Virus record (IMG/VR): IMGVR_UViG_3300011116_000553
Location: 1 to 47,055 of that record
Direction: 5' to 3' (one strand)
Origin: a virus
Length of the DNA: 47,055 bases
Shown here: positions 2,519-30,690 of the stretch, in pieces
Layout: each line of letters begins with the position of its first letter
Position numbering within the stretch: the stretch's first letter is position 1
Notes under the pieces: generated by a model
The model's database searches: none
The model's input: the letters and a program-made list of their open reading frames with translations, nothing else
What the model was told of the DNA's origin: nothing
Position numbers and translations under genes: made by a program

Positions 2519-2547
2519 ATTATATAGCAATCATAAAGATCTGTCAA
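2519..2547 (-). promoter_or_regulatory. perfect sigma-70 promoter for HLIP
   Basis: Minus-strand TTGACA (2542-2547) and TATAAT (2519-2524) are separated by exactly 17 bp. The -35 box overlaps the TGA stop of the last glycan-operon gene. It lies about 25 bp before the HLIP start, so the transcript has a very short leader. Confidence 0.9.
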
Positions 2548-5980: not shown

Positions 5981-5982
5981 AA

Positions 5983-6750: not shown

Positions 6751-6753
6751 AAA

Positions 6754-9153: not shown

Positions 9154-10079
9154 TTTATATTTTCTACGATTTGAAGAATGCCTTTGCACCTATTTAAATA
9201 AGTATGATCTTTTTTTATAATTTCCATTTGATGTACAATTAAATCTTTATTATACTGATTTTTCATTCCAAGATCAAATATTTCTTGGGCATCTTCAGAA
9301 ACCAACAGACTGTCATCAATAAAGTGTTTAAGATAGAAAGAATCAGAAACAGTAAGACAACCATAACTAATTGCCTTCAAAACACGACATGAAACATACC
9401 AATTATCTTTTTGTTCTTGCGGTCTAAAATCTGGAACAAACATCGATTCTTGAAGAATCCTAATATGTTCCTGATCAGTCGCAGGATTAATATTAGGATT
9501 ATAATGATTAAATGCAATATTTTTATTTTTTACAATATCAATAAAATCTTGATGAAGAGGTTTGGATTTTGGACGAGGAGAATGAATAGTACCAACAAAA
9601 TTATATTCGTTATTTCTCTGTCTATTGGCCCAATTAAAATCAATTTCATCAGGAAGCAAATTAGTTGCCCAACTAAAATAAACAACATTATAAGGTTCTG
9701 GTGCCTGAGTGTCAAAAGTGACTCCTTTTTCGACTTCAATATACCTATCACCATCTGGAATTGGTTTTTTGAATTCAGCAACTCGATAATTCACAAGACA
9801 CTTGACCTTATCAAGATACTTATCCAGATTTGTGAATTTATCATAAGAAAAATAAATTCCACTATCAATAATAGGAACATTCCAATCAAGTGGACCTTGA
9901 TTATCTACAAAAAAAATACAATCTGAGTAATCAAACTCCAATTTGGAAGGATAATTAGAATCACTAAACCAATATGTTTCACAACCCAATCTTTCAAATG
10001 CTTTTTTCATTCCAGCATAGATGTAAGAAAAAGTTTGATATGGTTTATTTTCTACCCAAAATACAATCTTTTTCTTCAC
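9150..10079 (-). CDS. putative glycosyltransferase (GT-B-like)
   Basis: This 309-residue protein has an N-terminal Rossmann-like half ([20 protein letters not shown]) and a C-terminal signature, [20 protein letters not shown], near residue 236. The latter resembles the donor-binding region of spore-maturation-type GT-B transferases, in which a conserved segment before a GC(L/F)xV turn binds the nucleotide sugar. [13 protein letters not shown] just before it is typical too. The gene overlaps its neighbours by ATGA on both sides. Sugar specificity is unknown. Confidence 0.6.
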
Positions 10080-11101
10080 TTTGTTGCCTCCAAATCACTA
10101 TCGCACATTTCCTTTACGAGATCAGAAAAAGAGTATCTAGGAGTCCAACCAATTCTGCTTTTAGTATAACTAGAATCACCAACAAGAGAATCAACTTCAG
10201 CAGGACGATAAAATTCTGAATTAACTTTTACAAGAACATTATTTGTATTTTTAAAGACTGCTACCTCCTCTATTCCCTCTCCTTTCCACTCAATATCAAA
10301 TCCAAAATGTTTACAGGCAATCTCAACAAATTCACGAACAGAATGCTGTTCACCCATTGCAACAACATAATCATCTGGTTTATTGTATTGAAGCATCAAC
10401 CACATTGCCTCCACATAATCTTTTGCATGACCCCAATCACGTTTTGCATCCATATTACCAAGTTCCAATGGTAGACTACGTTTACCATTCTTGATCTCTG
10501 CAAGAGTTTTAGTAATCTTACGAGTCACAAAAGTTTCTCCACGACGAGGACTTTCGTGATTAAAAAGAATTCCGTTACATCCAAATAAACCATATGCTTC
10601 ACGATAGTTTTTAGTAATCCAATGAGCATAAAGTTTTGCTACACCATAAGGAGATCTTGGATGAAATTTTGTACCTTCACGTTGGGGAATTTCTTGAACA
10701 AGACCATACATTTCTGAAGTGCTTGCCTGATAAAACTTGGTCGTATTAATCATGCCAAGAATTCGTAGTGCTTCAAGAATACGACAAACACCTAAAGCAT
10801 CTACATCAGCAGTATAAAGTGCATTGGAAAAAGATACTTTTACATGACTTTGTGCTGCAAGATTATAGATCTCATCAGGACGAGTTTCTTGAATGATAGA
10901 TGTAATATTTGAGAAATCAGTTAGATCTCCGTAATGTAAAGTGATTTTAGGATTTCCTAAAAGATAATTAATTCTATCAGTACAATCTGATGTTGAATTT
11001 CTACGAATAATTCCATGAACTTGATATCCTTTACACAAAAGGAGGTCTGCAAGATAAGATCCATCTTGACCAGTAATTCCAGTAATAAGTGCTTTCTTCA
11101 T
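10076..11101 (-). CDS. gmd: GDP-mannose 4,6-dehydratase
   Basis: The full length of 341 residues matches the family. [20 protein letters not shown] is the NADP site, and IIRRNSTSD follows it. [14 protein letters not shown] near residue 125 has the catalytic Thr/Glu, and [13 protein letters not shown] near 152 the Tyr/Lys pair. [18 protein letters not shown] near 186 is nearly invariant in Gmd. It converts GDP-D-mannose to GDP-4-keto-6-deoxymannose, the branch point to GDP-fucose, rhamnose or perosamine. Found in many cyanophages; here it supplies the operon's fucosyltransferase. Confidence 0.95.
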
Positions 11102-11102
11102 G

Positions 11103-11843
11103 TTAATAGTGAACTTGATAGTCTATAGGATTTGTTTTGATTTTATTATTTTTGATATGATGTTTAAGAAGAAGTTCATTGCACCAATATCCATCAACTT
11201 CATTTGATTGTCGGATGAGTTGGCCTATTTGATTGTATACGCCACAAAAAACATTCATTGTATTTGTTGATCCCATACCAAACCAATCACTAATCATACC
11301 ATCAGGTTGATATAGATCCTGATATATTAGTGTACAATCATCTATTGAAATCTCATTCAATTTTAGCACTACATGAGGAGAATAGTCAATTCTATTTCGA
11401 ATTACTAAATCATATTCAATTCCAATTTCTGTTGAATATTGCTCCTTCAAAAGATTTGACATCATAATACTATAAAACATACTATTTGTAGTATCACAAA
11501 TATAATCTTTTGCTGCTTCCAATCCTGTAGGAACTTCAAGTGCCCAAGTATGCGAATGTGTGAAAACCTTATCAGGAAACTCATATCTCTTTGACCATTT
11601 TTTTGGTTTCTCAACCATAATGCGTTTTGGTTGATAATAATGAACCAATTTATCAATTGCTTGAGGATCTAACCTATGAGATTCTCTGCCAGGAATAACA
11701 GAATTTGTACTAAGATTTTCAGAATCAAACCAAGTATGAATGAACACATCAACATCATTGTGCTGAAGAATTGATTGGCTTAGTTTCTGAAATCCAATAT
11801 CAACTACTCTTGGTTGACCAGATAAACATAATGCTACTTTCAT
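11103..11843 (-). CDS. putative glycosyltransferase-like protein of polysaccharide loci
   Basis: This 246-residue protein starts [20 protein letters not shown] and has [13 protein letters not shown] near residue 31, [13 protein letters not shown], and [13 protein letters not shown] near 144. This S-GQ-R / HTW / VIR-R-D pattern is a recurring family in capsule and O-antigen loci and in cyanophage sugar clusters. It is usually considered GT-A-like, with the late acidic motif in the metal site. No activity has been proved for it to my knowledge. It lies 1 bp before gmd and is coupled to the methyltransferase upstream. Confidence 0.6.
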
Positions 11844-12451
11844 AATTCTCGTTTATTTATAAAAACGACATCACTCAAATCTGATTTATTCCAAGATTCA
11901 ACATTAGTATCGTATTCATAAAAAAATTCAAAATTTATAGAATTAAAATATTCAATACAATCTTTTTTAATATATTCGCCACCATATCTTGGAATTTTAT
12001 TTGGACATTCTATTGCAATAAATTTTGTTCTATTTAAATTTTGTTTTGATAAAGATTTTACAATAGACAAATCCTTTCCTTCTGCATCTATTTTAATAAA
12101 ATGTATAATTTCTTCTGGCAAATCAACATCAATAATGCTATTGATATTTAAAATATCAACGAACCCCATTTTTTCACCTTTGAAAGAAAAAAGTGAGGAG
12201 GATTGATCATCATTATAAAACATTTGCCTTTGAGGAGTTTTAACGTCATCTAGACAAACACGATAAAACTTATCATAATGAGATTCTACTCCATAATCAA
12301 TTGGGTCAATTCCTATAGCATAAACATCTTTTAGATCAAAGAATTTTTCCAATTCTACCAAAAAAGATGCTCTTGCAGATCCAACATCTATAACGTTAAT
12401 CTTATCATATTGTTTTAATTCCTTAAATACTGGGGAAATTGTAGATGTCAT
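11840..12451 (-). CDS. FkbM-type SAM methyltransferase
   Basis: This 203-residue class I methyltransferase has NVIDVGSARASFLVELEKFF (the SAM motif I region), AIGIDPIDYG (motif II), and HFIKIDAEGKDLSIVKSL near residue 135. The I-K-IDxEG-x(3)-VxxG/S block is the hallmark of FkbM proteins. Members O-methylate sugars or polyketides. In this operon it may methylate a sugar hydroxyl as a terminal cap. The gene overlaps both neighbours by ATGA. Confidence 0.82.
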   Translation of the reverse strand: MTSTISPVFKELKQYDKINVIDVGSARASFLVELEKFFDLKDVYAIGIDPIDYGVESHYDKFYRVCLDDVKTPQRQMFYNDDQSSSLFSFKGEKMGFVDILNINSIIDVDLPEEIIHFIKIDAEGKDLSIVKSLSKQNLNRTKFIAIECPNKIPRYGGEYIKKDCIEYFNSINFEFFYEYDTNVESWNKSDLSDVVFINKREL

Positions 12452-12921
12452 TTAAATTTTTCCACATAATCACTACATATAGCAAAAGATTTTTTGCTAT
12501 ATGTTATTTTATCATTATCTTGAAAATTTGGCAAATCAAATAATTCTGGCATTACAATAACAGAATTATTTCCAAATAATTGCCCAGGATAAGTCCAAAT
12601 ATAACCTTTACTAGTCAAAGTATACTTATCGTTTTCATGCCAAAAAAAGTTAAAATCTATTGGGATATTAGAAAAAATATCCAAAGATTTAAAATCTTTA
12701 CAATGAATCCAAAGTTTATCTTTTCTTTTAACTAACCAAGTCATAGGAACATAATATTGTGGTTCATCATGTCCCAAATATATTCTATCATCAAATCGAT
12801 CATATCTTATATCGAGTTCAACATCAAAACCTTGCTTAATTGCTTCTTCAATATATTCTGGGCGATTTTCTTCTAATGGTTTTGGTCCATCAATATTACC
12901 ACGATGTGCAATTAACCTCAT
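12448..12921 (-). CDS. short glycerophosphodiester phosphodiesterase-like protein
   Basis: MRLIAHRGNIDGPKPLEENR and EAIKQGFDVELDIRYDR reproduce the start of the GDPD TIM barrel: the catalytic HRG, the E-N pair and the ExD metal ligands. IYLGHDEPQYYVP supplies the second His. The protein has only 157 residues against 230-250 for usual family members, so the barrel is shortened; similar short forms occur in polysaccharide loci. It might cleave or transfer a phosphodiester in the glycan, but activity is uncertain. Confidence 0.7.
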   Translation of the reverse strand: MRLIAHRGNIDGPKPLEENRPEYIEEAIKQGFDVELDIRYDRFDDRIYLGHDEPQYYVPMTWLVKRKDKLWIHCKDFKSLDIFSNIPIDFNFFWHENDKYTLTSKGYIWTYPGQLFGNNSVIVMPELFDLPNFQDNDKITYSKKSFAICSDYVEKFK

Positions 12922-13238
12922 ACAGAATACTTATCAGAAGGAATAGAAGGCCATCTTACTACTATCAAATTAACATCCGTCAAAAATTCAACATCTGATA
13001 TTTCATTTGGTTCATAAATCCACATATCACCAGATTTTAAATGTTTTTTAGAAACTATTAATTCTCCACTTACAATATAATTTAGTTCATTTGTAACTTT
13101 ATGATAATGGGGAAAAGTTTCTTGTCCTTTTATATGTTGATGATGGGCAACTTCAAAAAATGGATTTTTAAAAATAGAAGGATTAAAATCACCCACAAAC
13201 CATCCATTTGTAAATTGTAAAATATTTGCTTCTTTCAT
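12918..13238 (-). CDS. cupin-domain protein
   Basis: This 106-residue single-domain cupin has FPHYHKVTNELNYIVSGELI near residue 42 with the HxH...E metal-binding motif, and GDMWIYEPNEISDVEF as the second motif, although its usual His is missing. Small cupins in sugar loci act as sugar isomerases, epimerases or binding proteins. It is coupled by ATGA on both sides. I cannot choose a substrate; loss of one ligand may mean altered metal binding. Confidence 0.75.
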   Translation of the reverse strand: MKEANILQFTNGWFVGDFNPSIFKNPFFEVAHHQHIKGQETFPHYHKVTNELNYIVSGELIVSKKHLKSGDMWIYEPNEISDVEFLTDVNLIVVRWPSIPSDKYSV

Positions 13239-14389
13239 TCTAGTTCCTGAATACGAACTTGATGTCTTCCCCCATCAAAAGTATGATTAGTACAAAGTTC
13301 AAGATAGTTATCCATTCTTTCAAATGTAAAATCTTTTGCTGGAATTGCAAAGAAATTAGCACAGTTATGACGAACTGCCATTTCCATTGAATATTCATCA
13401 TATATCAAAGCAGAACGAATACCTTTATATTTGTTTGCACAAATATTTACACCTTGTCCTGTTCTACAAAAACCAAATCCATAATTACAATCACGTTCGG
13501 AAATTGCCTTAACTGCCTGTGCGATATAATCTCTATAGTCACAGTCTTTATTAAGAATTGTACCAAAGTCGATATATTCAAGATTATGTTTTTCTAGAAT
13601 ATGTTTAAACTCTTCTTTTGCTTCGAATCCAGAATGATCTGAGCAAATTGCAATAGGTTTATCTCCAAGTTTACGGATTACATTTTCTTTATAGAAATGA
13701 AACTCATCAGGAGTCCCAAAGACATGCATTTTATCTACATCTGAAGTAACAATCTTCTTATCGTCATCAACAAGAAGATTATACAGTGGTGCAATGTAGA
13801 ACTCATTCTTAGTTCTAATATCCTTTATAATCATCTCCCTAGCATACTTGCAGAAATCAGATCCTTTCTTGAATCCATAAATTCCCACACAAGCATTAGA
13901 ACTAATTGCTTTCTTTTCAGCCGTTCTTTTTACATATCCATCATCATCCACATCAGCATAACTATAATTTGCTGAATTAGATTTAAATGTCAAGAGAAGT
14001 CCATCAGCATCTAAATCATTCATAGTATGCGGATCAAATACTGGACGAAATTCGATGTCCAGTGTATGAATCACAAGTGGTGCATCATTATCAATATACT
14101 CTTCAGCATAAAGACAACTACAGACAGATCCATCAGTAAGTTTATCGAGAACTACAATCTTAATATCATCACCAAACTTTTTCTTTAGAAGTTCATCGAT
14201 GTGAAAATTATATACAGTCTCATCTCTAACTACGAAGATGAGATTGCAATCTTCGTAGTTAAGACAATCGAGTGAGATATCAATCAGATGTTTATCCTTG
14301 ATATTGATTAATTGTTTTGGTACTTTAAACCCTTCTTTAATAAATCTACTACCAAGTCCCGCCATCGGAACAAGAATATTTGGTTTCAT
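13235..14389 (-). CDS. fusion: sugar-phosphate nucleotidyltransferase + RpiB-type isomerase
   Basis: This 384-residue protein has two domains. Residues 1 to about 235 are a nucleotidyltransferase: ILVPMAGLGSRFIKEGFKVP has the GxGxR pyrophosphorylase loop and the Lys-Pro-K segment, and LVIHTLDIEF is the metal site. From about 243 on it is an RpiB/LacA isomerase: AICSDHSGFEAKEEFKHILE, FCRTGQGVNICANKYKGIRS with the catalytic Cys, and EMAVRHNCANFFAIPA. The domain order suggests isomerisation of a sugar phosphate and later nucleotide activation by one polypeptide. The neighbouring kinase and phosphatase fit the steps between. The exact sugar is unknown. Confidence 0.85.
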   Translation of the reverse strand: MKPNILVPMAGLGSRFIKEGFKVPKQLINIKDKHLIDISLDCLNYEDCNLIFVVRDETVYNFHIDELLKKKFGDDIKIVVLDKLTDGSVCSCLYAEEYIDNDAPLVIHTLDIEFRPVFDPHTMNDLDADGLLLTFKSNSANYSYADVDDDGYVKRTAEKKAISSNACVGIYGFKKGSDFCKYAREMIIKDIRTKNEFYIAPLYNLLVDDDKKIVTSDVDKMHVFGTPDEFHFYKENVIRKLGDKPIAICSDHSGFEAKEEFKHILEKHNLEYIDFGTILNKDCDYRDYIAQAVKAISERDCNYGFGFCRTGQGVNICANKYKGIRSALIYDEYSMEMAVRHNCANFFAIPAKDFTFERMDNYLELCTNHTFDGGRHQVRIQELE

Positions 14390-15057
14390 ATCGAATTCCT
14401 AATAATTTCAGTTGTTTTTATGTGAGCAAATTCAATCCAGTTTTTAATATCTTGTTTTGATTCTCTCAATAATTTATAAAGAAAACAAGAAGCAAAAATA
14501 TCTCCTGCGCCAAGAACATTTACATTTTGAAGTATCATTTCTTTTGGTAAATGATACTCAAAATCATCAAATCCATTTGTAACAAAACTACTAGTTGAAC
14601 TATGAAGAATTATATAACCACGAATATGATTTTCTAATTCAACTAAATCGTCTACATCTTCATCAGAAATAAACAAATAATCAATATATTGAAGAAGATT
14701 TAAATTAAGTTTTTTCCCTGGACAAATATCTGCCGTGACAATTCCATCCAAATCTTTAATAAAGTCAGTATTAGTCATTTCATTAATATAAATCAAATGA
14801 TTAATTTTTGATGAAATTATTTTTGGCTGAAATGATTTAAGATTGAGTGTTGCTTTAGAATATCTTTGTGACTTTTCTTTATCAATATAAATTAATGCTT
14901 CTCCAATATCAATTGGAGATAATCCAATCTTTATAGAATTATCTATTTCCAATAAAGATTTCCAGACATTTGCCATAGATCCCAATGTTTGTACTTGTTT
15001 TGTATCCTCAAGAATTGTATCTATAGTCAAATGACCATATAAAGTCACATCTTTCAT
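14386..15057 (-). CDS. PfkB-family sugar kinase
   Basis: This 223-residue protein starts DVTLYGHLTIDTILEDTKQV and ends with VNVLGAGDIFASCFLYKLL near residue 180, which is the PfkB signature with the catalytic Asp of GAGD. It is shorter than typical PfkB kinases (about 300 residues), lacking part of the lid. Heptose kinases of the HldE type are in the same superfamily. It overlaps the isomerase-nucleotidyltransferase fusion by ATGA and the phosphatase by 1 bp, so the three are made together. Confidence 0.8.
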   Translation of the reverse strand: MKDVTLYGHLTIDTILEDTKQVQTLGSMANVWKSLLEIDNSIKIGLSPIDIGEALIYIDKEKSQRYSKATLNLKSFQPKIISSKINHLIYINEMTNTDFIKDLDGIVTADICPGKKLNLNLLQYIDYLFISDEDVDDLVELENHIRGYIILHSSTSSFVTNGFDDFEYHLPKEMILQNVNVLGAGDIFASCFLYKLLRESKQDIKNWIEFAHIKTTEIIRNSI

Positions 15058-15590
15058 TAGAACTTTTCCTTTAAATCTAATTCATAAATTTTATTCATAA
15101 TTTCATCATATGAAACCTTAGGAATTAAATTTTTCTTTTCTGCAAGTTCAAAAAATTTCATAATTACATTATCGCCACCATTGGTAGAAAGTTCTTTAGC
15201 ATATTTTTTAACCATTTTTGGAGAATTCTTTACACAAAAAGAATTTTTAATCATTTTCATGATTCCAACATCAAAAAGATCATCACCAATATAAGCTACT
15301 TCTTTAGCGGTGACATTATATTGATCTAAAATTTCTTGAAGAAAATTCTTTTTGTCTTTATGTGTCCCATTACTGCGATTTACAATCACTGAGAGATTTC
15401 TATTTTTAAGAATGCTTTCATTGTAAGTGTCTCCAGTAATAAAAACAACTTCCACACCTAAAGCACGAAATCTTTTAATTGCGGTCCAATCTTTATCACA
15501 AAAACTTTTAAGTACTACCTTACCTTCACGATCATAGTACTTTACTCCATCAGTAAGTACACCATCTACATCTAAGATTAAAACTTTCAT
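15057..15590 (-). CDS. HAD phosphatase, KdsC-like
   Basis: This 177-residue C0-type HAD protein has MKVLILDVDGVLTDGVKYYD (nucleophile DxD), VVFITGDTYNESILKNRNL (motif II Thr), HKDKKNFLQEIL (Lys) and VAYIGDDLFDVGIMK (motif IV DD). Its size and lack of a cap match KDO-8-phosphate phosphatase and related enzymes that act as tetramers. In this operon it could remove a phosphate from the sugar bisphosphate made by the PfkB kinase before nucleotide transfer. Confidence 0.85.
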   Translation of the reverse strand: MKVLILDVDGVLTDGVKYYDREGKVVLKSFCDKDWTAIKRFRALGVEVVFITGDTYNESILKNRNLSVIVNRSNGTHKDKKNFLQEILDQYNVTAKEVAYIGDDLFDVGIMKMIKNSFCVKNSPKMVKKYAKELSTNGGDNVIMKFFELAEKKNLIPKVSYDEIMNKIYELDLKEKF

Positions 15591-15593
15591 AAT

Positions 15594-16691
15594 TTAAAAT
15601 AATAACAAGTTATTATTACATTCATCATCACAAAATTCAATTACTTTATTGTCCATTTGAGAATAAATCCATTCATAAGTGCTACGAATACCCTCTTCTA
15701 AAGTCATACTATAATCCCAACTAAGTTCTTTACGAACTATATCGTTATTGGAATTTCTTCCACGAACACCAAGAGGTGCATCTAACTTGTGCATTTTTTG
15801 CACATCTTTAGTGGCAACTTTTGCAGCAGTTTCTACAAGTTGATTGATAGTTACCATTTCTTCTGAACCAATATTGACTGGTCCAATAAAGTCAGAATTC
15901 ATCAATCTACGAGTTGCTTCAATGCATTCATCAATATAAAGGAATGAACGAGTTTGAAGTCCATCTCCCCATACTTCAATCGTTCCACCTACATCAGGAA
16001 GTTCTGCAACCTTTCTACAAATAGCAGCAGGTGCCTTTTCCCTTCCGCCAGTCCAAGTACCTTCTGGTCCAAAAATATTATGATAACGAGCAACTCTTAC
16101 TGGAATACCACAATTGCGATGATAAGCAAAGTACAGACGTTCTGAGAAAAGTTTCTCCCACCCATACTCAGAGTCTGGGGCAGCAGGGTAGGCAGAGTCC
16201 TCACGACAATCAGGATTATTAGGATCTAACTGATTGTGCTCTGGATACATGCAAGCTGAACTACTGTAGAACACCTTAGTCTTATTTACTCCACAATGTT
16301 CATTCAATTCCTTGATAGCACGAAGAACATTTAGATTAATTGATGCAGAGTTTTGCATCACATCAGCATCGTGCTCTCCTGTGAAGATATATCCTGCTCC
16401 ACCCATATCGGCAGCAAACTGATAAACTTCATCAAATGGTAAAATATATCTTGAAGGAACAAAATTATAAAAGTTTCCTAGATATCCTTTAAATTGAACT
16501 ACACGTTCGGTAAAGTAAAAATCAGTAAGATCTCCTTGAATAAACTCGTGTGCCTCTGTTTCCGAGAACTCAGGTCTTTTAATATCTACACCACGAACCC
16601 AATATCCTTCGGATCGTAGTCTCTTAACCATATGACTTCCAATAAAACCACCTGCACCAAGTACAAGTGCAGTTTTTTGATATTGACTCAT
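15594..16691 (-). CDS. GDP-mannose 3,5-epimerase-like SDR
   Basis: This 365-residue extended SDR has KTALVLGAGGFIGSHMVKRL (NAD site), QFAADMGGAGYIFTGEHDAD near residue 110 (the A-DMGG-G block of GDP-mannose 3,5-epimerases), FYSSSACMYPEHNQ and DSEYGWEKLFSERLYFAY with the catalytic Tyr/Lys, then SFLYIDECIEATRRLM. Related enzymes epimerise GDP-sugars and GDP-heptoses. It is the first gene of the glycan operon, directly behind the terminator-promoter near 16740. A 30-residue tail (IEFCDDECNNN) extends beyond the usual end. Confidence 0.88.
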   Translation of the reverse strand: MSQYQKTALVLGAGGFIGSHMVKRLRSEGYWVRGVDIKRPEFSETEAHEFIQGDLTDFYFTERVVQFKGYLGNFYNFVPSRYILPFDEVYQFAADMGGAGYIFTGEHDADVMQNSASINLNVLRAIKELNEHCGVNKTKVFYSSSACMYPEHNQLDPNNPDCREDSAYPAAPDSEYGWEKLFSERLYFAYHRNCGIPVRVARYHNIFGPEGTWTGGREKAPAAICRKVAELPDVGGTIEVWGDGLQTRSFLYIDECIEATRRLMNSDFIGPVNIGSEEMVTINQLVETAAKVATKDVQKMHKLDAPLGVRGRNSNNDIVRKELSWDYSMTLEEGIRSTYEWIYSQMDNKVIEFCDDECNNNLLLF

Positions 16692-21280: not shown

Positions 21281-21472
21281 TTATCTCATAAAAGGTTCAA
21301 TATGATTTAAAAAGAATACATCACAATTATCTTTTTGTATAATCCATTCTCGTATCTCTCTATGTAAACTTTCTGCTTCCTTTCTTCTTCCATATTTAAT
21401 GTGAGTATTCATCATTTCAAGATAATAATCAATAATATTATCACATAGATTTTTCATTTCTGATTTGTTCAT
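21281..21472 (-). CDS. small helical protein after a GIY-YIG gene
   Basis: ATG 21472, preceded by GGAAAG, gives 63 residues: MNKSEMKNLCDNIIDYYLEM, then KYGRRKEAESLHREIREWII and a short acidic tail. It overlaps the end of the GIY-YIG gene by 32 bp in another frame. The helical, amphipathic composition is protein-like. There is no recognised family; it may be a passenger of the mobile gene or an old phage gene. Confidence 0.5.
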   Translation of the reverse strand: MNKSEMKNLCDNIIDYYLEMMNTHIKYGRRKEAESLHREIREWIIQKDNCDVFFLNHIEPFMR

Positions 21473-21893
21473 TAAAATAATCTTTCCTATAATATCTTCC
21501 AAGAATATTACTATTGTAATACTTTGGCATTCCATCGTCAAGTGCTTCACTCAAAACATTATTCAAAAATAATTGTTTTGTTTCTTCAAAATTTGTCTTA
21601 CCTAATGTCTTATGAAGACTTATTATAGTTCTTTCAAACTTATCTTTTCCAAATACTTTTATATCTTCTTTGAGTTCTGGACAACTTCCATAGTAGTTTT
21701 TCCAATCACTTTCTCTTTTACTTTTTCTTTTTTTTCCTTTATCTTTTCTAAAAGACCAAAAATACTTTCTTCCAATATAACACCTAGTATTACAAGTATT
21801 TCGTATATGATATACAAACCCAAAGTAATCTTGGATATCATTTGTCTCAAAAGGTTCATTATTATATAACCAAGGATTATCGTATGTTGCCAA
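21441..21893 (-). CDS. GIY-YIG-like endonuclease (homing gene)
   Basis: This 150-residue protein probably starts at TTG 21893. GFVYHIRNTCNTRCYIGRKYF near residue 24 has the GxY-x(10)-YIG core. Then RKSKRESDWKNYYGSCPELK gives the catalytic-helix Arg/Lys segment, and TNFEETKQLFLNNVL near 112 the acidic residue and Asn. It fits phage GIY-YIG nucleases of the Seg/Hef type that act as free-standing homing endonucleases. A late promoter (21918-21925) and a terminator-embedded sigma-70 promoter lie just upstream. Confidence 0.75.
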   Translation of the reverse strand: MATYDNPWLYNNEPFETNDIQDYFGFVYHIRNTCNTRCYIGRKYFWSFRKDKGKKRKSKRESDWKNYYGSCPELKEDIKVFGKDKFERTIISLHKTLGKTNFEETKQLFLNNVLSEALDDGMPKYYNSNILGRYYRKDYFNEQIRNEKSM

Positions 21894-23993: not shown

Positions 23994-24398
23994 TTATAAC
24001 ACATTCATTCCAATATTTAATATTACATACTCATACCCATCATACAAAATACCAGAGTAATATTCTACAGTATTCAAAACAGAAAATATATTATATTCTC
24101 TTCCATCATCAAATGGTGTTATATCTATCAAATCACCATAAGTGTTTTTCCAAATACTATGATATATCGCACATCCATAATTATCATTATCAACGTCCGT
24201 AATTAGATAATATCCACTTATCTTTTCTCCACCATAAGTATTCACATAATGATTTACATTATTGTGGCAGTTTGCGTCGGCACATAGAGGTTTAGATACT
24301 ACAGGAATTTTTAATAAAGTAGAAGAGAATTCGCAATACTTTTGAAGTTTTATTACACATTTATCTTCTGGTAGTGATATTCTAAACTTTCTTTTCAT
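23994..24398 (-). CDS. hypothetical protein with Cys/His motif
   Basis: The start at ATG 24398 gives 134 residues; a longer frame to 24419 lies inside the GIY-YIG gene. PLCADANCHNNVNHYVNTYG near residue 37 carries a C-x4-CH-x2-N motif, followed by GEKISGYYLITD and DLIDITPFDDGREYN. This C-H-N-V-Y-GG-GY pattern recurs in phage and bacterial proteins of unknown role. It overlaps the homing gene by 17 bp and ends at a strong terminator. Confidence 0.65.
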   Translation of the reverse strand: MKRKFRISLPEDKCVIKLQKYCEFSSTLLKIPVVSKPLCADANCHNNVNHYVNTYGGEKISGYYLITDVDNDNYGCAIYHSIWKNTYGDLIDITPFDDGREYNIFSVLNTVEYYSGILYDGYEYVILNIGMNVL

Positions 24399-24918
24399 TT
24401 TTTCTTTTTTCCCAGGCAAGTTTCATTTTTTCTCTTGTTTCTGAAGAATGTTTTTTACCATAAAAATGATTTTTTTCTCCCTTATGGGATTCACTTAATT
24501 TTTGTCTGGTTTCTTGCGAGATTATTTTATTATAAGTAGGATGATTTTTACCTTTTTTTGATTCACTCATTTTTCTTTTGGTTTCTTCTGTGAGGATTTT
24601 GCCTTTGTTTATTTCACTTAATTTTCTTCTAGTTTCCTCACTTCTAATAATACCAGAAGAACCTTCTCCACCATTAGTTTTATTATGAAGAATACCAGTT
24701 CCTAAATCTTTTCTACCAAACACGGCAATCATATAGATTTCGTGCTTGAATGCCTCTTCTTCTGTTAGGTTTTGTTTGAGAAAAATTATTCTGGTTTTAT
24801 CTTTAGGTGGTTGCATTTCACCTTTACACTTAAAGTATGCTCTATATTCCTTACCTTTACCAATATAATAGGGAGTCCTATCTTTACGCAAATAAGCGTA
24901 AGTATAATATTCGTTCAT
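24382..24918 (-). CDS. GIY-YIG homing endonuclease with NUMOD3 repeats
   Basis: This 178-residue protein has a GIY-YIG domain at 1-90: YTYAYLRKDRTPYYIGKGKE, then LTEEEAFKHEIYMIAVFG with the catalytic Glu, and NKTNGGEGSSG with the Asn. Four NUMOD3 DNA-binding repeats follow: SEETRRKLSEINKGK, TEETKRKMSESKKGK, SQETRQKLSESHKG and SSETREKMKLAWEKR. NUMOD3 is typical of I-TevI-like homing enzymes. It lies directly after nrdB, a common homing target region. Its start codon closes an inverted repeat with a late promoter in the loop. Confidence 0.9.
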   Translation of the reverse strand: MNEYYTYAYLRKDRTPYYIGKGKEYRAYFKCKGEMQPPKDKTRIIFLKQNLTEEEAFKHEIYMIAVFGRKDLGTGILHNKTNGGEGSSGIIRSEETRRKLSEINKGKILTEETKRKMSESKKGKNHPTYNKIISQETRQKLSESHKGEKNHFYGKKHSSETREKMKLAWEKRKNEKKV

Positions 24919-24993
24919 TGTGTCTTGGCGTTGACTTACTATTATTTATAGTAAAAAAGTGGGACTTACGCAACTATATCCGCCAAGACACAA
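24918..24993 (-). repeat. 13-bp inverted repeat enclosing a late promoter, ending at the homing-gene start
   Basis: TTGTGTCTTGGCG (24918-24930) and CGCCAAGACACAA (24981-24993) are perfect inverted copies 50 nt apart. On the minus strand the 3' arm ends at the ATG of the GIY-YIG gene. A read-through mRNA would form the hairpin; an mRNA from the enclosed late promoter would lack the 5' arm. Confidence 0.85.
24943..24950 (-). promoter_or_regulatory. T4-type late promoter inside hairpin loop
   Basis: A perfect TATAAATA on the minus strand lies in the 50-nt loop of the inverted repeat, 25 bp before the start codon of the GIY-YIG/NUMOD3 gene. Confidence 0.75.
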
Positions 24994-25036: not shown

Positions 25037-26221
25037 TTAAAGTTTAAACCCAGTAAAACTATCGTTTTTCATATCTTGTTTAATTCCACCAACCAAATAA
25101 CTTGAAATTTGAGTTTGTTGTGGTGCAACTTGAACTGATTTAGAATTAATCCAATGTTCAGTCCAAGGAAGTGGATTGTTCTTTGATGCAATATCATATT
25201 CAGGTTTCAACCCAATTGCTTTCATTCTACGATTTGCAATCCACTCAACATAATTTCCAAGTAGTTTATCATTTAAACCTATCATAGAACCATCTTTGAA
25301 CAAATATTCTGCCCATAGTTTTTCTTCATTTACACAAGTTATAAATGCGTGTCTTACCCATTCTTGTTCCTCCTTAGCAATCTTCTGCATCTCTGGATCA
25401 TCCCCATCATTCCATTTGTTGATGATATTTTGAGTGATGACAAGATGCTGATTTTCATCTCTTGCGATAAGAGAGATAATTTTGGCAGATCCCTCCATGA
25501 GTTTAAGTTCCCCAAACGCAAAAGAACACGCAAACGAGACATAAAATCTAATCCCCTCTAAAATGTTTACATTCGCAACTGCACGATATAGTTTTCGTTT
25601 TAATTCAATTCTTGCATCAGTTCCATAAGGAACACCTTCATTTGCAAATTCCCAATCATTGGAAGTTCCATAAGAATGTGCAGAATTAATAAAGTCATCA
25701 TAAGCACCAGTAACTGATGCTGCTCTTTCTAATATCTTTTCATTATTTAGAATAGTATCAAAAACTTCTGATGGATCAGAATAAACATTCTTAATAATAT
25801 AAGTATAAGATCTAGAATGTATCATTTCCATAAATTGCCATACCGTCATACATGCCTCAAGTTCTGGAAGTGAACAGTAAGGTGTAAATGCCATTCCAGG
25901 TCCACGACCTTGAACAGAGTCCAACATAATTTGATACTTCAAATTAGAAGTGAAAATATGTTTTTGTTCTGGTCTTAGTGTTTGATAATCTCCACGATCT
26001 TTTTGTAACGAGATTTCTTCTGGTCTCCAAAAGAAACCAAGTTGTTGTTGAGTTAACTTATCAAAAATTGGATACTTATAAGAATCGTATCTTTGAATTC
26101 CTAGAGGTTTTCCAAAAAACATTTGTTGCTTTTTAAAATCAACGTCATTAGTGTTAAAGACGGTTATTCCTTTGAGCATTTTTGGTGTTTGCGAGTGAAC
26201 TCTAAATTTTGCAACTTTCAC
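25037..26221 (-). CDS. nrdB: ribonucleotide reductase class I beta subunit
   Basis: With GTG 26221 as start (GGAGAAG lies 7 bp before it) the protein has 394 residues; ATG 26179 is an alternative used by many relatives. It has the R2 di-iron and radical site: IMLDSVQGRGP (Asp), LPELEACMTVWQFMEMIHSR with E-x2-H, SYTYI with the radical Tyr four residues on, then ILEGIRFYVSFACSFAF and ISLIARDENQHLVITQ with the second E...E-x2-H set. It generates the tyrosyl radical used by NrdA. It overlaps the nrdA 3' part by 20 bp. The C-terminal tail needed for NrdA binding is present. Confidence 0.95.
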   Translation of the reverse strand: MKVAKFRVHSQTPKMLKGITVFNTNDVDFKKQQMFFGKPLGIQRYDSYKYPIFDKLTQQQLGFFWRPEEISLQKDRGDYQTLRPEQKHIFTSNLKYQIMLDSVQGRGPGMAFTPYCSLPELEACMTVWQFMEMIHSRSYTYIIKNVYSDPSEVFDTILNNEKILERAASVTGAYDDFINSAHSYGTSNDWEFANEGVPYGTDARIELKRKLYRAVANVNILEGIRFYVSFACSFAFGELKLMEGSAKIISLIARDENQHLVITQNIINKWNDGDDPEMQKIAKEEQEWVRHAFITCVNEEKLWAEYLFKDGSMIGLNDKLLGNYVEWIANRRMKAIGLKPEYDIASKNNPLPWTEHWINSKSVQVAPQQTQISSYLVGGIKQDMKNDSFTGFKL

Positions 26222-27302
26222 AATCTTCTTCTCCTGAACTTAAAATTTCATTTACTAAGTCACTAATATTATTTACCTTTTCTTCTTTTGCATCATCCGT
26301 CTTCCCATCATAGGTGTTTTGATAATAAGAGGTCTTCCAACCTAATTTATATGTGGTGAGAAAATCATTTGCCATTACACTTACAGGAACTTCGTTGTCT
26401 GGATAATTTTCTGGATTATAAGACCAATTTCCCGATATTGCCTGGTCAAAAAACTTCTGCATCACGGCAACAATATTAATATATCCACGATTAGATTTCA
26501 TATCCCAAAGTAAAGTATAGTTATTTTTCAGAGTTGTGTACTGGGGAACAATTTGTTTGAGTGGTCCCTTTTTAGATTGTTTTACCGACAAATATCCACG
26601 AGGAGGTTCAATACCATTTGTTGCGTTTGATGTTACGCTACTACTTTCTGAGGGCATCTGAGCAGATAATGTGGAGTGTCTCAATCCATATTGAGATATG
26701 GATGCTCGCAGTGCTTCCCAGTCGTGTTGAAGGGGAATGTTACCAATCTCATCTACATCTTTTTTATAAGTATCAATCGGAAGAATTCCATCAGAATATT
26801 TGGTGCGTCCGAAGTATTCACAATATCCTTTTTCTTGAGCAATCTTATTAGATGCCTTAAGAAGAAAATATTGAAATGATTCCGAAAGTCCGTGAACTGC
26901 ATCCCATGCCTCTTGTGAATCATAGGCAAATCCAAGTTTGGCAAGATAATGTGCAAGACCAATAAATCCCACACCTAATGCTCTACGACGTTTTGTAAAG
27001 TTTTCTGCTGCCTTGACTGGATAATGTTGATAATCAATCAGTTCTTCAAGTCCTCTAACAACAAGGTCACAGAGTTCTTCAAGTTCTTCATCTGATTTGA
27101 TTTTACCAACATTCAATGCACTCAAAATGCAAGTTGCGATTTCTTCTGGTCCATCGTCATCAATATGCTGAAACGGTATTGTTGGAAGTGTGATTTCCAT
27201 ACAATTATGAACCAAAATATCATTTGCAAAGAAATTGTGAGTTCCTTCTACAGTTATATCATAAACTGGTATTTCTTCTTCAAGATATTCAATCTTTAAC
27301 AT
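26202..27302 (-). CDS. nrdA: split intein C-part + NrdA C-terminal part
   Basis: This 366-residue protein starts at ATG 27302, preceded by AGGAG. Residues 1-33 are an intein C-terminal fragment: IPVYDITVEGTHNFFANDIL (block F) then VHN (block G, penultimate His and last Asn). Residue 34 is the +1 Cys and begins the R1 sequence CMEITLPTIPF, equivalent to E. coli Cys439, the thiyl-radical residue. Later motifs match R1: the Cys462 equivalent (EEIATCILSALNVG), STLSAQMPSESSSVTSN, NGIEPPRGYLSVK, and the C-terminal redox pair CESCKI. It cannot work alone; protein trans-splicing with the 28025-29692 product should rebuild a 767-residue enzyme. Confidence 0.95.
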   Translation of the reverse strand: MLKIEYLEEEIPVYDITVEGTHNFFANDILVHNCMEITLPTIPFQHIDDDGPEEIATCILSALNVGKIKSDEELEELCDLVVRGLEELIDYQHYPVKAAENFTKRRRALGVGFIGLAHYLAKLGFAYDSQEAWDAVHGLSESFQYFLLKASNKIAQEKGYCEYFGRTKYSDGILPIDTYKKDVDEIGNIPLQHDWEALRASISQYGLRHSTLSAQMPSESSSVTSNATNGIEPPRGYLSVKQSKKGPLKQIVPQYTTLKNNYTLLWDMKSNRGYINIVAVMQKFFDQAISGNWSYNPENYPDNEVPVSVMANDFLTTYKLGWKTSYYQNTYDGKTDDAKEEKVNNISDLVNEILSSGEEDCESCKI

Positions 27303-27970
27303 TTTTTTCTCCTGTTTTGTTCTAAAAGTTTTCTAGCAAGTTGTCTTTGAGATTCGTCCCTGTAATAAGGATTATACACCAATTCAGTTTTTTCTTCAAT
27401 AAATTTATAATAGTTTTGGTGGTTTCCTTCAAATCTATTTTTGGAAAAACTTTTGGGAAATTTTACACCTAATTCATTAATAGCAAAATCAACTATTCTT
27501 TTTCTTCCAGCAATAAACCCATATTTTTTAGCAAACTTTACTCCAATTTCTATAAGTTGCTCGTCAGTATAACCAGAATGATTTGGATTACCGGAACCAG
27601 TATTTCTAATTATAACACCATTTCTCCACTCATCCTGGACCTCTTGAGAGCATCTTGGGAGCATCCAACCACCCGTTCCACCTGAAGTGGCATTATATCC
27701 TTTTTTAGTATCACTTTCAAAAAGGTTAATAAAATGAGATTCTTTTTCGTTGATAAGATTTTCATCTTCTGTTTGATAAGTTTCAATCACAGATAAGTCC
27801 CAACAATCTTCACCATATTTTCTAATAGCAGAATGAAATCTAAATTTAGAACCATTTTTTGCCGATGATAAATGACGATGCCAACGATGTTCCAAAGAAT
27901 ATTCAGTTTTTCCTATGTAAGGTTTTCCGTTTTTTGTATTGGTGATTTTATACACAATATATGTTTTCAT
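27296..27970 (-). CDS. GIY-YIG homing endonuclease between the two nrdA halves
   Basis: This 224-residue protein has YIVYKITNTKNGKPYIGKT (the GIY-YIG core, YKI...YIG), LEHRWHRHLSSAK with the catalytic Arg, LINEKESHFINLF with the catalytic Glu, and GYNATSGGTGG with the Asn. The C-terminal 120 residues (EQLIEIGVKFAKKYG, RKRIVDFAINELG) look like a helix-turn-helix DNA-recognition region. It sits where an endonuclease domain would be in an unsplit intein and overlaps the intein-C gene by 7 bp. A late promoter in a 14-bp stem loop lies just upstream. Confidence 0.92.
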   Translation of the reverse strand: MKTYIVYKITNTKNGKPYIGKTEYSLEHRWHRHLSSAKNGSKFRFHSAIRKYGEDCWDLSVIETYQTEDENLINEKESHFINLFESDTKKGYNATSGGTGGWMLPRCSQEVQDEWRNGVIIRNTGSGNPNHSGYTDEQLIEIGVKFAKKYGFIAGRKRIVDFAINELGVKFPKSFSKNRFEGNHQNYYKFIEEKTELVYNPYYRDESQRQLARKLLEQNRRKKC

Positions 27971-27971
27971 A

Positions 27972-28025
27972 ATAGGAAGTGTAATCTCATAACTATTTAT
28001 AAGATATAGACATTACACTCCCTAT
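27972..28025 (-). repeat. 14-bp inverted repeat enclosing a late promoter, ending at the homing-gene start
   Basis: ATAGGAAGTGTAAT (27972-27985) and ATTACACTCCCTAT (28012-28025) pair along 14 positions, with one G-U pair in the minus-strand RNA. The 5' arm touches the nrdA-N stop and the 3' arm ends 1 nt before the ATG of the homing gene. The 26-nt loop holds TATAAATA. Confidence 0.85.
27994..28001 (-). promoter_or_regulatory. T4-type late promoter inside hairpin loop
   Basis: A perfect TATAAATA on the minus strand lies between the two arms of the inverted repeat, 24 bp before the GIY-YIG start codon. Confidence 0.75.
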
Positions 28026-29692
28026 CAATTAATTACCAACTCATCAGTTTCAGTTAGGTCTTTTGCCAGTACATATCCACGATTTTTCGTAAATACTTTG
28101 TGTTCTGGTGTGACTACAATACTTTTACCACTTTCTTCATCAGTAATTTTCATTACCTTTGCTTTTGGTGATGTTTCTGCAAATGCAGTTATTGGTGCCC
28201 ATTTATTCTCACCAGTTTCAATATCATATGAAAGAACTTCAAGATTTTTAACAAATAAATTATTCACATATTCGTCCAAATCTTTAATTTTAATTTCAGT
28301 CATTTTATCATTACAATCACCGACAATAGTATTGTCCGAATAATCATCAAGATTATGTTTGATCCAAATCAAAGTGTTTCCGGAAACACAAAGATTACTC
28401 ATATTTACCGTATCCTTAAAGGAACTATGAGAGTTACAATGATCTATATTCATAATATAAATACGACCGGTTTCTGCTCTTTCTTTGAGAAGATTGAGAA
28501 TAAGTTCTTGTGCTTTTATTGTTTTCTTCGGAATAGATTGGTTATTTTCATACTCAATGTATAGAGAGTCAAACTTGTCTGTTCCGAAAGAATCATATAG
28601 TCCAGGTACATCGTGCGGGGAGAAAAGCGTAATCTCACCATCTTGAATAAATCTTTCATAAAATAACTTACTCAATTGAATACCATAATCTAGTTTACGA
28701 ACACGATTATCTTCTGTCCCTTTGTTATTTTTAAGAACTAATATATCTTCTATTTCCTGATGCCATATTGGAAAAAATATTGTCGAACTCCCACCTCGAA
28801 TTCCATTTTGAGTACAACACCTAACAGTTGATTCAAACTTTTTGAGGAAAGGGATAACACCTGTATGAGAAACTTCTCCTCCTCTAATCTTACTGTTGAT
28901 GCCACGAATGCGACCTGCATTGATACCTATACCAGCCCTTTGTGATACATACCTGCCAATAGCCATATCACTGCTAAAGATGCTATCTAGGGTGTCATCA
29001 ACATCAACCAGAACACAAGATGCAAATTGACGAAGTGGGGTTCTGACCCCTGCCATAATGGGGGTTGGAATGTTGATTCGGTGTCTTGAGATTGCATTAT
29101 AGTATTTACGGATGTAATCTAAACGAGTCTCTTTTGGATATTTAGAGAAGATTGTTGCCGCAATCATCATATACATAAACTGCGGAGTTTCATATACCTT
29201 TGAATTGCTGCGATCTTGTACCAAATACTTATCAACTACCTGACGGAGACCGGCATAAGTAAATAGATAATCTCTACTATGTTTAATAAAAGAACCAAGA
29301 CGATTGAGTTCTTCTTCTGTATATAATGATAAAATTTCAGAATCATAAACTCCAAGATTTACACAAGACTGAATATGTGTAAAAAAGTCTGGATGCTCTT
29401 GAATTTTTCCATATAAAGATTTACGAACAGAAAATAAAAGAAGTCTAGCAGCAACATATTGATAGTTTGGATTTTCTAAATCAATTAAATCTGATGCGGA
29501 ACGAATTAAAATCTCTTGTATTTCGGCAGTCGTAATTCCATCATAAAACTGAATTCCTGATTGTATTTCTACTTGAGATGCAGAAACACCTGCAAGGTCT
29601 CTACATGCTTCTTCAACCATGATATGAAGTTTGTCGAGATCAAGATGTTCAATCTTGCCACCTCTTTTGATAACATTTGTATTGTTGCTCAT
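28025..29692 (-). CDS. nrdA: NrdA N-terminal part + split intein N-part
   Basis: ATG 29692 overlaps the primase stop (ATGA) and gives 555 residues; a start at 29704 is possible. Residues 1-90 are an ATP-cone (KRGGKIEHLDLDKLHIMVEE) for allosteric control. The R1 barrel follows with TPLRQFASCVLVDVDDTL (Cys225 equivalent) and RIYIMNIDHCNSHSSF. After NMSNL at residue 434 the intein N-part (121 residues) begins: CVSGNTLIWI (block A) and SIVVTPEHKVFTKNRGYVLA (block B with TxxH), stopping after DELVIN. No endonuclease domain is present. The intein sits exactly before the radical cysteine. Confidence 0.95.
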   Translation of the reverse strand: MSNNTNVIKRGGKIEHLDLDKLHIMVEEACRDLAGVSASQVEIQSGIQFYDGITTAEIQEILIRSASDLIDLENPNYQYVAARLLLFSVRKSLYGKIQEHPDFFTHIQSCVNLGVYDSEILSLYTEEELNRLGSFIKHSRDYLFTYAGLRQVVDKYLVQDRSNSKVYETPQFMYMMIAATIFSKYPKETRLDYIRKYYNAISRHRINIPTPIMAGVRTPLRQFASCVLVDVDDTLDSIFSSDMAIGRYVSQRAGIGINAGRIRGINSKIRGGEVSHTGVIPFLKKFESTVRCCTQNGIRGGSSTIFFPIWHQEIEDILVLKNNKGTEDNRVRKLDYGIQLSKLFYERFIQDGEITLFSPHDVPGLYDSFGTDKFDSLYIEYENNQSIPKKTIKAQELILNLLKERAETGRIYIMNIDHCNSHSSFKDTVNMSNLCVSGNTLIWIKHNLDDYSDNTIVGDCNDKMTEIKIKDLDEYVNNLFVKNLEVLSYDIETGENKWAPITAFAETSPKAKVMKITDEESGKSIVVTPEHKVFTKNRGYVLAKDLTETDELVIN

Positions 29693-30690
29693 ACTCGTTT
29701 CCATCCGATAAGTTTTGCCTTTGCTTCTAATCCCATAAAAGTATTCCCCTTTATGATTTTTTCTACATCAAGTCCTTCTAATATCATATCATTAATATCC
29801 TTATATTTCAAGTCTTGTGGCCAAATCACCACGGGAAATTTCATATCAATTGTCTTTTCGACTCTTGCTATCATTTCTTTATTTCTTTTTTCATTATCAT
29901 AAACAAATACGAATTCAACATCATAATTTTGAATAAAAAACATATAATCCATATCAGCACCAACCATAGCAATAGCATTATTCAAAAACATACTATCAAA
30001 AGGTCCTTCAACAATATAAACTGTTCTATTCCAATCAATTGTATCCCAACCAAATACTTTTGGTTGATGTTCATCCAAAATAATTGTAATGTATTTGACC
30101 TTTGATGATTTACTTAAACTTCTACCTTGATATCCAAAGATTTCACCATCCTTTATTAAAGGAATAATAATTCTAGGTTCATCATATTGAACTGAGTTAA
30201 AGGTCTGTTTTTGTGTATTTGTCCATTCTTTAAATTTTTCACAATAATACAGTTCACGTAGAAATTTTTCTGGTATTTGTCTTTTTTCTAAATATGCTCT
30301 TGCTGGATGTTCTGTATTTAGTTCTGCTATAGTTTGAAGATTTAGACTTTTTTTCTTGAACGAAGGTTTTTCAAACTTAATATCTGGTTCTGGAGTATTT
30401 GATCTTTTTCCAGTCAAACCACTCTTATACCTTTCCATCACATACTGATCATAAAGAACAGTATCAATATCTTTTAAAAAATTAGTAAAAGTTCGTGATA
30501 CGCCACAGTTATGACACTTAAAGTTATAATCATTCTTTATTTGATATAAGTATCCACGAGCTTTGCTCTTTTGTTTTTCAGAGTCACCGCAATAGTTACA
30601 ACGGAAATTATATAAACCTGATTTTTTCTTTGTAAATTTTTGAAGCCTGGATGAAACTAATGAAATGTATTTTTCATCAATAAAACTCAT
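29689..30690 (-). CDS. 61: DNA primase, T4 gp61-type
   Basis: This 333-residue primase has an N-terminal zinc site (YNFRCNYCGDSEKQKSKARG and NDYNFKCHNCGVSRTFTNFL, i.e. C-x2-C ... C-x2-C). A linker follows, then a TOPRIM domain: GYQGRSLSKSSKVKY, VYIVEGPFDSMFLNN with the catalytic Glu, and FVFVYDNEKRNKEMI with DxD-like acids. It makes RNA primers with the gp41 helicase for lagging-strand synthesis. Its stop overlaps the nrdA start, so replication and nucleotide supply genes are co-expressed. It overlaps the upstream small gene by ATGA. Confidence 0.93.
   Translation of the reverse strand: MSFIDEKYISLVSSRLQKFTKKKSGLYNFRCNYCGDSEKQKSKARGYLYQIKNDYNFKCHNCGVSRTFTNFLKDIDTVLYDQYVMERYKSGLTGKRSNTPEPDIKFEKPSFKKKSLNLQTIAELNTEHPARAYLEKRQIPEKFLRELYYCEKFKEWTNTQKQTFNSVQYDEPRIIIPLIKDGEIFGYQGRSLSKSSKVKYITIILDEHQPKVFGWDTIDWNRTVYIVEGPFDSMFLNNAIAMVGADMDYMFFIQNYDVEFVFVYDNEKRNKEMIARVEKTIDMKFPVVIWPQDLKYKDINDMILEGLDVEKIIKGNTFMGLEAKAKLIGWKRV

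What the first reader, a model, noticed from the sequence alone, without database searches (positions are those of the whole stretch)
27972..28025. Late promoter enclosed by a hairpin that ends at the homing-gene start codon in nrdA
Seen: a 14-position inverted repeat (one G-U) spans from the nrdA-N stop to 1 nt before the GIY-YIG ATG, with TATAAATA in its loop. Known: T4 I-TevI and some T4 late genes are silenced in read-through early mRNA by such hairpins and expressed from a late promoter inside them. Inference: early nrdA transcripts would hide the homing-gene start, while late transcripts lack the 5' arm and free it. Here the regulated gene sits in a split-intein locus, not an intron.
Basis: partly seen in the sequence, partly recalled or inferred. 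Interest (0 to 1): 0.85.

Follow-up and report, generated by a model that had tools for sequence, protein, structure and literature searches.

The report
Stage-timed silencing hairpin of homing gene
In an uncultured T4-like cyanophage a selfish DNA-cutting gene that sits inside a split ribonucleotide-reductase gene carries its own RNA hairpin and late promoter, which should keep it untranslated in long early messages and switch it on late; this is a known T4 strategy, here found in a new setting and shown by sequence comparison to recur, with changing but matching stem sequences, in front of many cyanophage homing genes.

Summary
On the minus strand a 14-pair stem (one G-U) runs from the last base of the nrdA-N stop codon (28025) to 1 nt before the GIY-YIG ATG (27970), with TATAAATA (28001-27994) in its loop (fold z -5.4). 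It is conserved: 41 of 42 distinct leaders of the same gene in IMG/VR keep stem and NATAAATA. Read-through RNA buries the start region (median opening cost 15.9 kcal/mol); a transcript from the predicted late start frees it (2.3). Covariation within this family is weak because sequence hardly varies. It is very strong in the family of the window's second homing-type gene (24382-24918), which has the same arrangement with an unrelated stem: 62 distinct arm pairs, own-arm pairing -22.2 against -10.8 kcal/mol for swapped arms. Mismatches are G-U rather than A-C on the sense strand (27:3 and 20:4; chance about 0.75:1), so selection acts on RNA. Late genes that are not homing genes mostly lack the feature. 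The mechanism is established for T4 I-TevI and for Aeh1 mobE, which also splits nrdA. This is a new member of that kind, in a split-intein locus, without a Shine-Dalgarno in the leader. Transcripts and protein timing are not shown.

The parts
28025..29704 (-). nrdA-N: ATP cone and N-terminal part of NrdA, followed by the N-half of a split intein (from residue C441, 28384-28028)
   Evidence: Pfam PF03477, PF00317, PF02867, Intein_splicing; NrdA part ends at T4 NrdA residue 438
28012..28025 (-). 5' arm of the hairpin, AUAGGGAGUGUAAU; its first base is the last base of the nrdA-N stop codon
27994..28001 (-). T4-type late promoter TATAAATA in the loop; predicted transcript start about 27988
   Evidence: sequence; NATAAATA is the published cyanophage late promoter (PMC2984593); start position inferred from T4 spacing
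27972..27985 (-). 3' arm of the hairpin, AUUACACUUCCUAU, ending 1 nt before the homing-gene ATG
   Evidence: 98.2% of stem cells pair over 41 distinct leaders
27296..27970 (-). GIY-YIG homing endonuclease (HEG1), 224 aa, no Shine-Dalgarno in its leader
   Evidence: PF01541 E 8.5e-11; PHROG 314 homing endonuclease E 2.9e-24; Y7, Y18, R29, E77, N93 invariant in 13 homologues
27309..27313 (-). Shine-Dalgarno AGGAG of nrdA-C, lying inside the 3' end of the homing gene
   Evidence: SD before intein-C in all 19 distinct junctions with a separate intein-C; none in the contiguous mini-inteins
26202..27302 (-). nrdA-C: C-half of the split intein (27302-27204) and the rest of NrdA; overlaps the homing-gene stop by 7 nt
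   Evidence: PF02867, Intein_splicing; resumes at T4 NrdA residue 437
24981..24993 (-). 5' arm of the second, unrelated hairpin, UUGUGUCUUGGCG
   Evidence: 13/13 complementary to 24918-24930
24943..24950 (-). late promoter TATAAATA inside the second hairpin
24918..24930 (-). 3' arm of the second hairpin, CGCCAAGACACAA, ending on the A of the ATG of the second homing-type gene
24382..24918 (-). second homing-type endonuclease (HEG2, NUMOD3 motifs) downstream of nrdB
   Evidence: PF07460 E 7.9e-29; PHROG 314 homing endonuclease E 6.2e-17

Best explanation
The leader is a stage-dependent translational switch that travels with a GIY-YIG homing-endonuclease cassette inserted into a mini-intein of nrdA. 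In read-through transcripts of the nrd operon both arms are present. The 14-bp stem closes the region from -2 to about -55 and keeps ribosomes off the endonuclease AUG, while nrdA-C, with its own AGGAG inside the end of the endonuclease gene, is still translated and trans-spliced to nrdA-N. Once the phage late sigma factor is active, transcription starts in the loop (about 27988). The late mRNA contains only the 3' arm and its start codon is open. Shown here: anatomy, conservation, predicted folding difference, RNA-type mismatches, covariation in the sister family, own SD for nrdA-C. Inferred: promoter use, early read-through, translation timing, intein splicing, homing activity.
For: (1) Fold z -5.37. 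(2) 41 of 42 distinct leaders keep stem plus NATAAATA; two of them have CATAAATA or GATAAATA, both fitting the published NATAAATA. (3) Leader identity 89.9%, against 79.3% at third codon positions of the gene and 42% in the adjoining flank. (4) Opening the start region costs 15.9 kcal/mol in read-through RNA and 2.3 in late RNA; other late genes 6.5 and 4.2. (5) HEG2 family: own arms -22.2 against swapped -10.8 kcal/mol; SegE-like genes -9.5/-9.1 and other late genes -10.2/-9.7. (6) Stem mismatches G-U:A-C = 27:3 and 20:4; in chance pairings 0.7-0.8. (7) Among genes behind exact TATAAATA, those outside the two families that rank highest for own-arm pairing are mostly endonuclease-like by domain search or by motif reading. 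(8) Same layout in Aeh1 mobE, where published work shows the hairpin lowers translation (PMC3014915). (9) nrdA-C has its own SD in every cassette-bearing junction.
Against: No transcript data for this phage; it is known only from metagenomes. No SD is visible in the late leader (GAGAUUACACUUCCUAUU), so efficient late translation is assumed. Covariation inside this family is thin: two compensated changes (L235 A-U to U-A, L230 A-U to G-C) against A-C mismatches in others. One leader (L210/L229) has lost both promoter and stem while the gene stays open. Arm pairs within a family are not phylogenetically independent.
Confidence: 0.83

Rival explanations
1. DNA-level operator: the inverted repeat is a binding site where the endonuclease or another protein represses the late promoter, as I-TevI does at its own operator.
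For: The repeat surrounds the promoter; I-TevI autorepression is published (PMC2988022).
Against: Mismatches are strongly G-U and rarely A-C on the sense strand (27:3, 20:4), which DNA recognition does not predict. In the HEG2 family the arm sequences differ among relatives while staying complementary. The leader shows no similarity to the insertion site in mini-intein or intein-free nrdA.
Confidence: 0.06
2. RNA processing or stability element: the hairpin protects the 3' end of nrdA-N mRNA or is an RNase site that separates nrdA-N from the downstream genes, and start-codon occlusion is secondary.
For: It begins on the nrdA-N stop codon; the Aeh1 mobE transcript is processed at an RNase E-like site (PMC2988022). 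Compatible with the main explanation as an extra role.
Against: It does not explain the late promoter kept in the loop nor the stem ending at the start codon. No U-tract follows, so it is not an intrinsic terminator.
Confidence: 0.08
3. Chance or hitch-hiking: AT-rich sequence and a common 8-mer in a recently spread cassette.
For: TATAAATA alone is near chance in the window; HEG1 leaders are closely related.
Against: Fold z -5.4; leader more conserved than silent sites; the same layout with unrelated stems in HEG2, other endonucleases, T4 and Aeh1.
Confidence: 0.02

Closest known systems
Aeromonas phage Aeh1 mobE (HNH homing endonuclease in nrdA)
   Same: Endonuclease gene between two nrdA pieces; 13-bp hairpin (AUUUGCACCCUCU/AGAGGGUGCAAAU) ending at the AUG; late-promoter-like TCTAAATA in the 5' arm/loop; downstream nrdA-B with its own AGGAG and overlapping the endonuclease end; split at T4 NrdA about 444-452 against 437/438 here.
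   Different: HNH not GIY-YIG; no intein (nrdA pieces assemble as separate chains); its 3' arm holds an SD-like AGAGGG, absent here; promoter overlaps the 5' arm, here it lies wholly in the loop.
T4 I-TevI leader in the td intron (also I-TevII, I-TevIII, segB)
   Same: GIY-YIG endonuclease (I-TevI); hairpin in read-through RNA; late promoter placed so that late RNA lacks the 5' arm (PMC2988022; fold).
   Different: Group I intron, RBS sequestered, promoter overlaps the 5' arm; known autorepression by the protein, no sign of it here.
Fractured genes: split inteins with a free-standing endonuclease in between (Dassa et al. 2009)
   Same: Conserved enzyme gene broken by a split intein with an endonuclease gene between; nrdA with inteins is cited from that study (PMC3653736).
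   Different: The paper could not be read here; from memory its abstract mentions control elements brought in with the endonuclease. Whether this hairpin was described is not known to me.
T4 lysozyme gene e and soc leaders
   Same: Inhibitory hairpin over the start in early read-through RNA; for gene e late promoters lie in the 5' part of the structure (PMC3014915).
   Different: Phage structural or lysis genes, not mobile endonucleases.

Membership tests
Hairpin/late-promoter-controlled T4-type homing endonuclease genes | Gene encodes a homing-type endonuclease | tested here: met
   GIY-YIG Pfam E 8.5e-11, PHROG homing endonuclease E 2.9e-24; cleavage not testable
Hairpin/late-promoter-controlled T4-type homing endonuclease genes | RNA stem covers the translation start in upstream-initiated RNA | tested here: met
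   (prediction)
Hairpin/late-promoter-controlled T4-type homing endonuclease genes | Late promoter placed so that late RNA lacks the 5' arm | tested here: met
   TATAAATA in the loop; promoter activity itself not testable
Hairpin/late-promoter-controlled T4-type homing endonuclease genes | A consensus Shine-Dalgarno is sequestered by the stem (T4 intron endonucleases) | tested here: not met
   No SD close to the ATG in the leader; the AUG-proximal region is covered instead. Described for the T4 intron endonucleases; for T4 mRNAs in general the review says SD and/or AUG, so this is not taken as excluding membership
Hairpin/late-promoter-controlled T4-type homing endonuclease genes | Gene embedded in an early or middle transcription unit | tested here: inconclusive
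   lies between nrdA-N and nrdA-C/nrdB, all on the minus strand; expression timing not testable
Hairpin/late-promoter-controlled T4-type homing endonuclease genes | Hairpin shown to lower translation, 5' end mapped | not testable with these tools
   needs experiment
Fractured split-intein gene with inserted endonuclease | Intein halves on separate ORFs flanking a free-standing endonuclease | tested here: met
   Intein_splicing matches at 467-557 of nrdA-N and 3-33 of nrdA-C (each below the Pfam cut-off alone), endonuclease between; contiguous mini-inteins at the same site in L165, L204, L226

The most novel reading that the evidence does not exclude
Cyanophage homing endonucleases as a class carry a portable self-silencing leader whose stem sequence is free to drift as long as the arms match. 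In the HEG2 relatives it comes in an elaborated form: an outer stem encloses an intrinsic terminator directly followed by the late promoter, so read-through RNA is first terminated and, if it escapes, is folded shut. Such leaders were apparently built many times around unrelated stem sequences, and could be used to find mobile genes by structure alone.
Probability: 0.55. Interest if true: 0.62.

Novelty: new member of a known kind. Interest (0 to 1): 0.48.

Why it matters
It extends a classic T4 regulatory design, so far described from a handful of coliphage and Aeromonas phage genes, to abundant cyanophages and to a split-intein gene. It gives strong comparative evidence that the design is selected at RNA level. 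It also suggests how a selfish gene can sit inside an essential early enzyme gene: it hides itself early and supplies a ribosome site for the half-gene behind it. The sister family offers about 60 natural stem variants for testing the mechanism.

Tried and rejected
Covariation within the HEG1 family alone: only one pair position with two-sided changes, 174 of 500 shuffles as good, so not usable as proof. Intrinsic terminator: no U-tract, not in the scan. Rfam: no relevant match. Operator similar to the insertion site: none. Bacterial genome collection: no relative. Annotated phages: no close relative of the endonuclease (identity of the top-ranked hit 35%, all below 60%) or of the leader. The SegE-like gene 21441-21893 as a third example: its stem is weak and relatives show no own-arm excess, rejected. 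Strong 'stems' around GATAAATA within nrdA coding sequence are false positives. Dassa 2009 and a Gibb and Edgell paper are not held, so these are known only through citing reviews or memory.

Full report
WHAT IS THERE. The window is a 47-kb IMG/VR virus record of a T4-like cyanophage; its closest named relatives at nrdA are Synechococcus phages. On the minus strand the order is primase, nrdA-N, GIY-YIG gene, nrdA-C, nrdB, second endonuclease gene. nrdA-N ends with the first half of an intein and nrdA-C starts with the second half.

IS IT MORE THAN CHANCE. The sense RNA folds with z -5.37, none of 200 shuffles as good. About 100 stretches of IMG/VR encode relatives of the GIY-YIG protein, and every one whose upstream context was read lies in the same split-intein nrdA. 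Of 42 distinct leaders, 41 keep the stem and NATAAATA; the sole exception (L210/L229) lost both. The leader is 89.9% identical on average, against 79.3% at third codon positions of the gene and 42% in the DNA just upstream (the flank aligned without gaps), so it is constrained and begins close to the edge of the cassette. A 41-base pattern of the leader found 55 stretches in the collection; by contig name nearly all were already known to carry this gene, and the few new ones were not examined.

WHAT THE STEM WOULD DO. Opening -15 to +10 costs a median 15.9 kcal/mol in read-through RNA and 2.3 in RNA starting 6 nt after the promoter. For the HEG2 family it is 12.7 and 3.4, for SegE-like genes 9.4 and 4.8, for other late genes 6.5 and 4.2. 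The predicted late leader is GAGAUUACACUUCCUAUU: only the 3' arm remains. It has no Shine-Dalgarno near the ATG. By contrast nrdA-C has AGGAG six bases before its ATG, inside the end of the endonuclease gene. All 19 distinct junctions with a separate intein-C have such a site and the contiguous mini-inteins have none. So one early message can yield NrdA-N and NrdA-C without the endonuclease between them; that step is inference.

RNA OR DNA. Counted with a strand-symmetric alignment, mismatches within the stems are G-U 27 against A-C 3 for this family and 20 against 4 for the HEG2 family. Chance complementarity between mismatched loci gives 0.7 to 0.8. Selection therefore appears to see RNA of the coding strand. 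The counts are not phylogenetically independent, above all in the first family.

COVARIATION. Within the first family the stem is 98.2% paired but so conserved that covariation is weak. The second endonuclease gene of the window (24382-24918, NUMOD3 type, behind nrdB) has a 13/13 stem of unrelated sequence that encloses TATAAATA and ends on its ATG. Its relatives supply 62 distinct arm pairs such as CTGATTTGACCGCA/TGCGGTCAAATTAG, GTGTCTTGGCG/CGCCAAGACAC and TTATGTGTTGCA/TGCAACACATAA. Pairing of own arms averages -22.2 kcal/mol, of swapped arms -10.8; for SegE-like genes -9.5 and -9.1, for other late-promoter genes -10.2 and -9.7. Among genes behind an exact TATAAATA, ranked by own-arm excess and outside the two families, the top ten look like endonucleases. 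Pfam or PHROGs support most of those tested (PHROG 314 homing endonuclease, HNH, GIY-YIG); the rest go by motif reading only. Some HNH-like genes behind TATAAATA lack the stem, so the rule is not universal. Many HEG2 relatives nest what looks like an intrinsic terminator and the promoter inside the outer stem, which then ends about 5-16 nt before the ATG.

HOW THE CASSETTE CAME AND GOES. Unsplit mini-inteins at the same nrdA site exist (L165, L204, L226), and intein-free nrdA in S-SRM01. L225 has lost the endonuclease but keeps the 5' arm TATAGGAAGTGTAATTTCTA as a scar directly before an AGGAG and intein-C. These states bracket insertion and loss.

COMPARISON. T4 I-TevI, I-TevII, I-TevIII, segB and Aeh1 mobE are reviewed as hairpin plus promoter systems (PMC2988022), T4 gene e likewise (PMC3014915). 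I folded Aeh1 mobE: a 13-bp stem ends at the ATG, TCTAAATA lies in it, and nrdA-B behind it has its own AGGAG. The Aeh1 split is at T4 NrdA 444-452, the present one at 437/438. So layout, host gene and almost the insertion point recur with a different endonuclease family and with an intein added. The locus works like these systems and meets the testable defining features except sequestration of a Shine-Dalgarno.

VERDICT. Observation confirmed, interpretation supported at sequence level. Known kind, new setting. The added value is the family-wide covariation and the RNA-type mismatch bias. No expression data exist for it here.

Noticed in passing
24918-24993 (minus): Second homing-type gene behind nrdB has the same leader design with an unrelated 13/13 stem around TATAAATA.
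   Followed up: yes
L088, L095, L159 just before position 3001 and relatives: Outer stem encloses what looks like an intrinsic terminator whose T-run touches the late promoter: terminator and translational lock combined in one leader.
   Followed up: partly
L225:4400-4440: Endonuclease deleted from the split intein; the 5' arm of the hairpin remains as a scar before the Shine-Dalgarno of intein-C.
   Followed up: partly
L210:3563-3600 (same contig as L229): Only leader without promoter and long stem; a short hairpin TTTCATA-ACTAGC-TATGAAA now holds the ATG.
   Followed up: partly
26202-27302 and Aeh1 (L404): Two unrelated endonucleases split nrdA within about 15 residues of each other in different phages; possible insertion hot spot.
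   Followed up: partly
27296-27970 and homologues: The same GIY-YIG half is joined to two different C-terminal halves (FIGGRKRIVEF... and FIPGLKRLIKF... types), suggesting swapping of the DNA-binding part.
   Followed up: no
L390 (MW015081 62515-63273): HEG2-type endonuclease in Synechococcus phage S-SRM01 is annotated 'translation initiation factor 2', apparently a misannotation; annotated starts may also lie upstream of the late promoter.
   Followed up: partly
No self-silencing stem.
   Followed up: partly
2544-16691 (minus): Long island of sugar-nucleotide, glycosyltransferase-like and methyltransferase-like ORFs in a T4-like cyanophage, read from ORF translations only.
   Followed up: no
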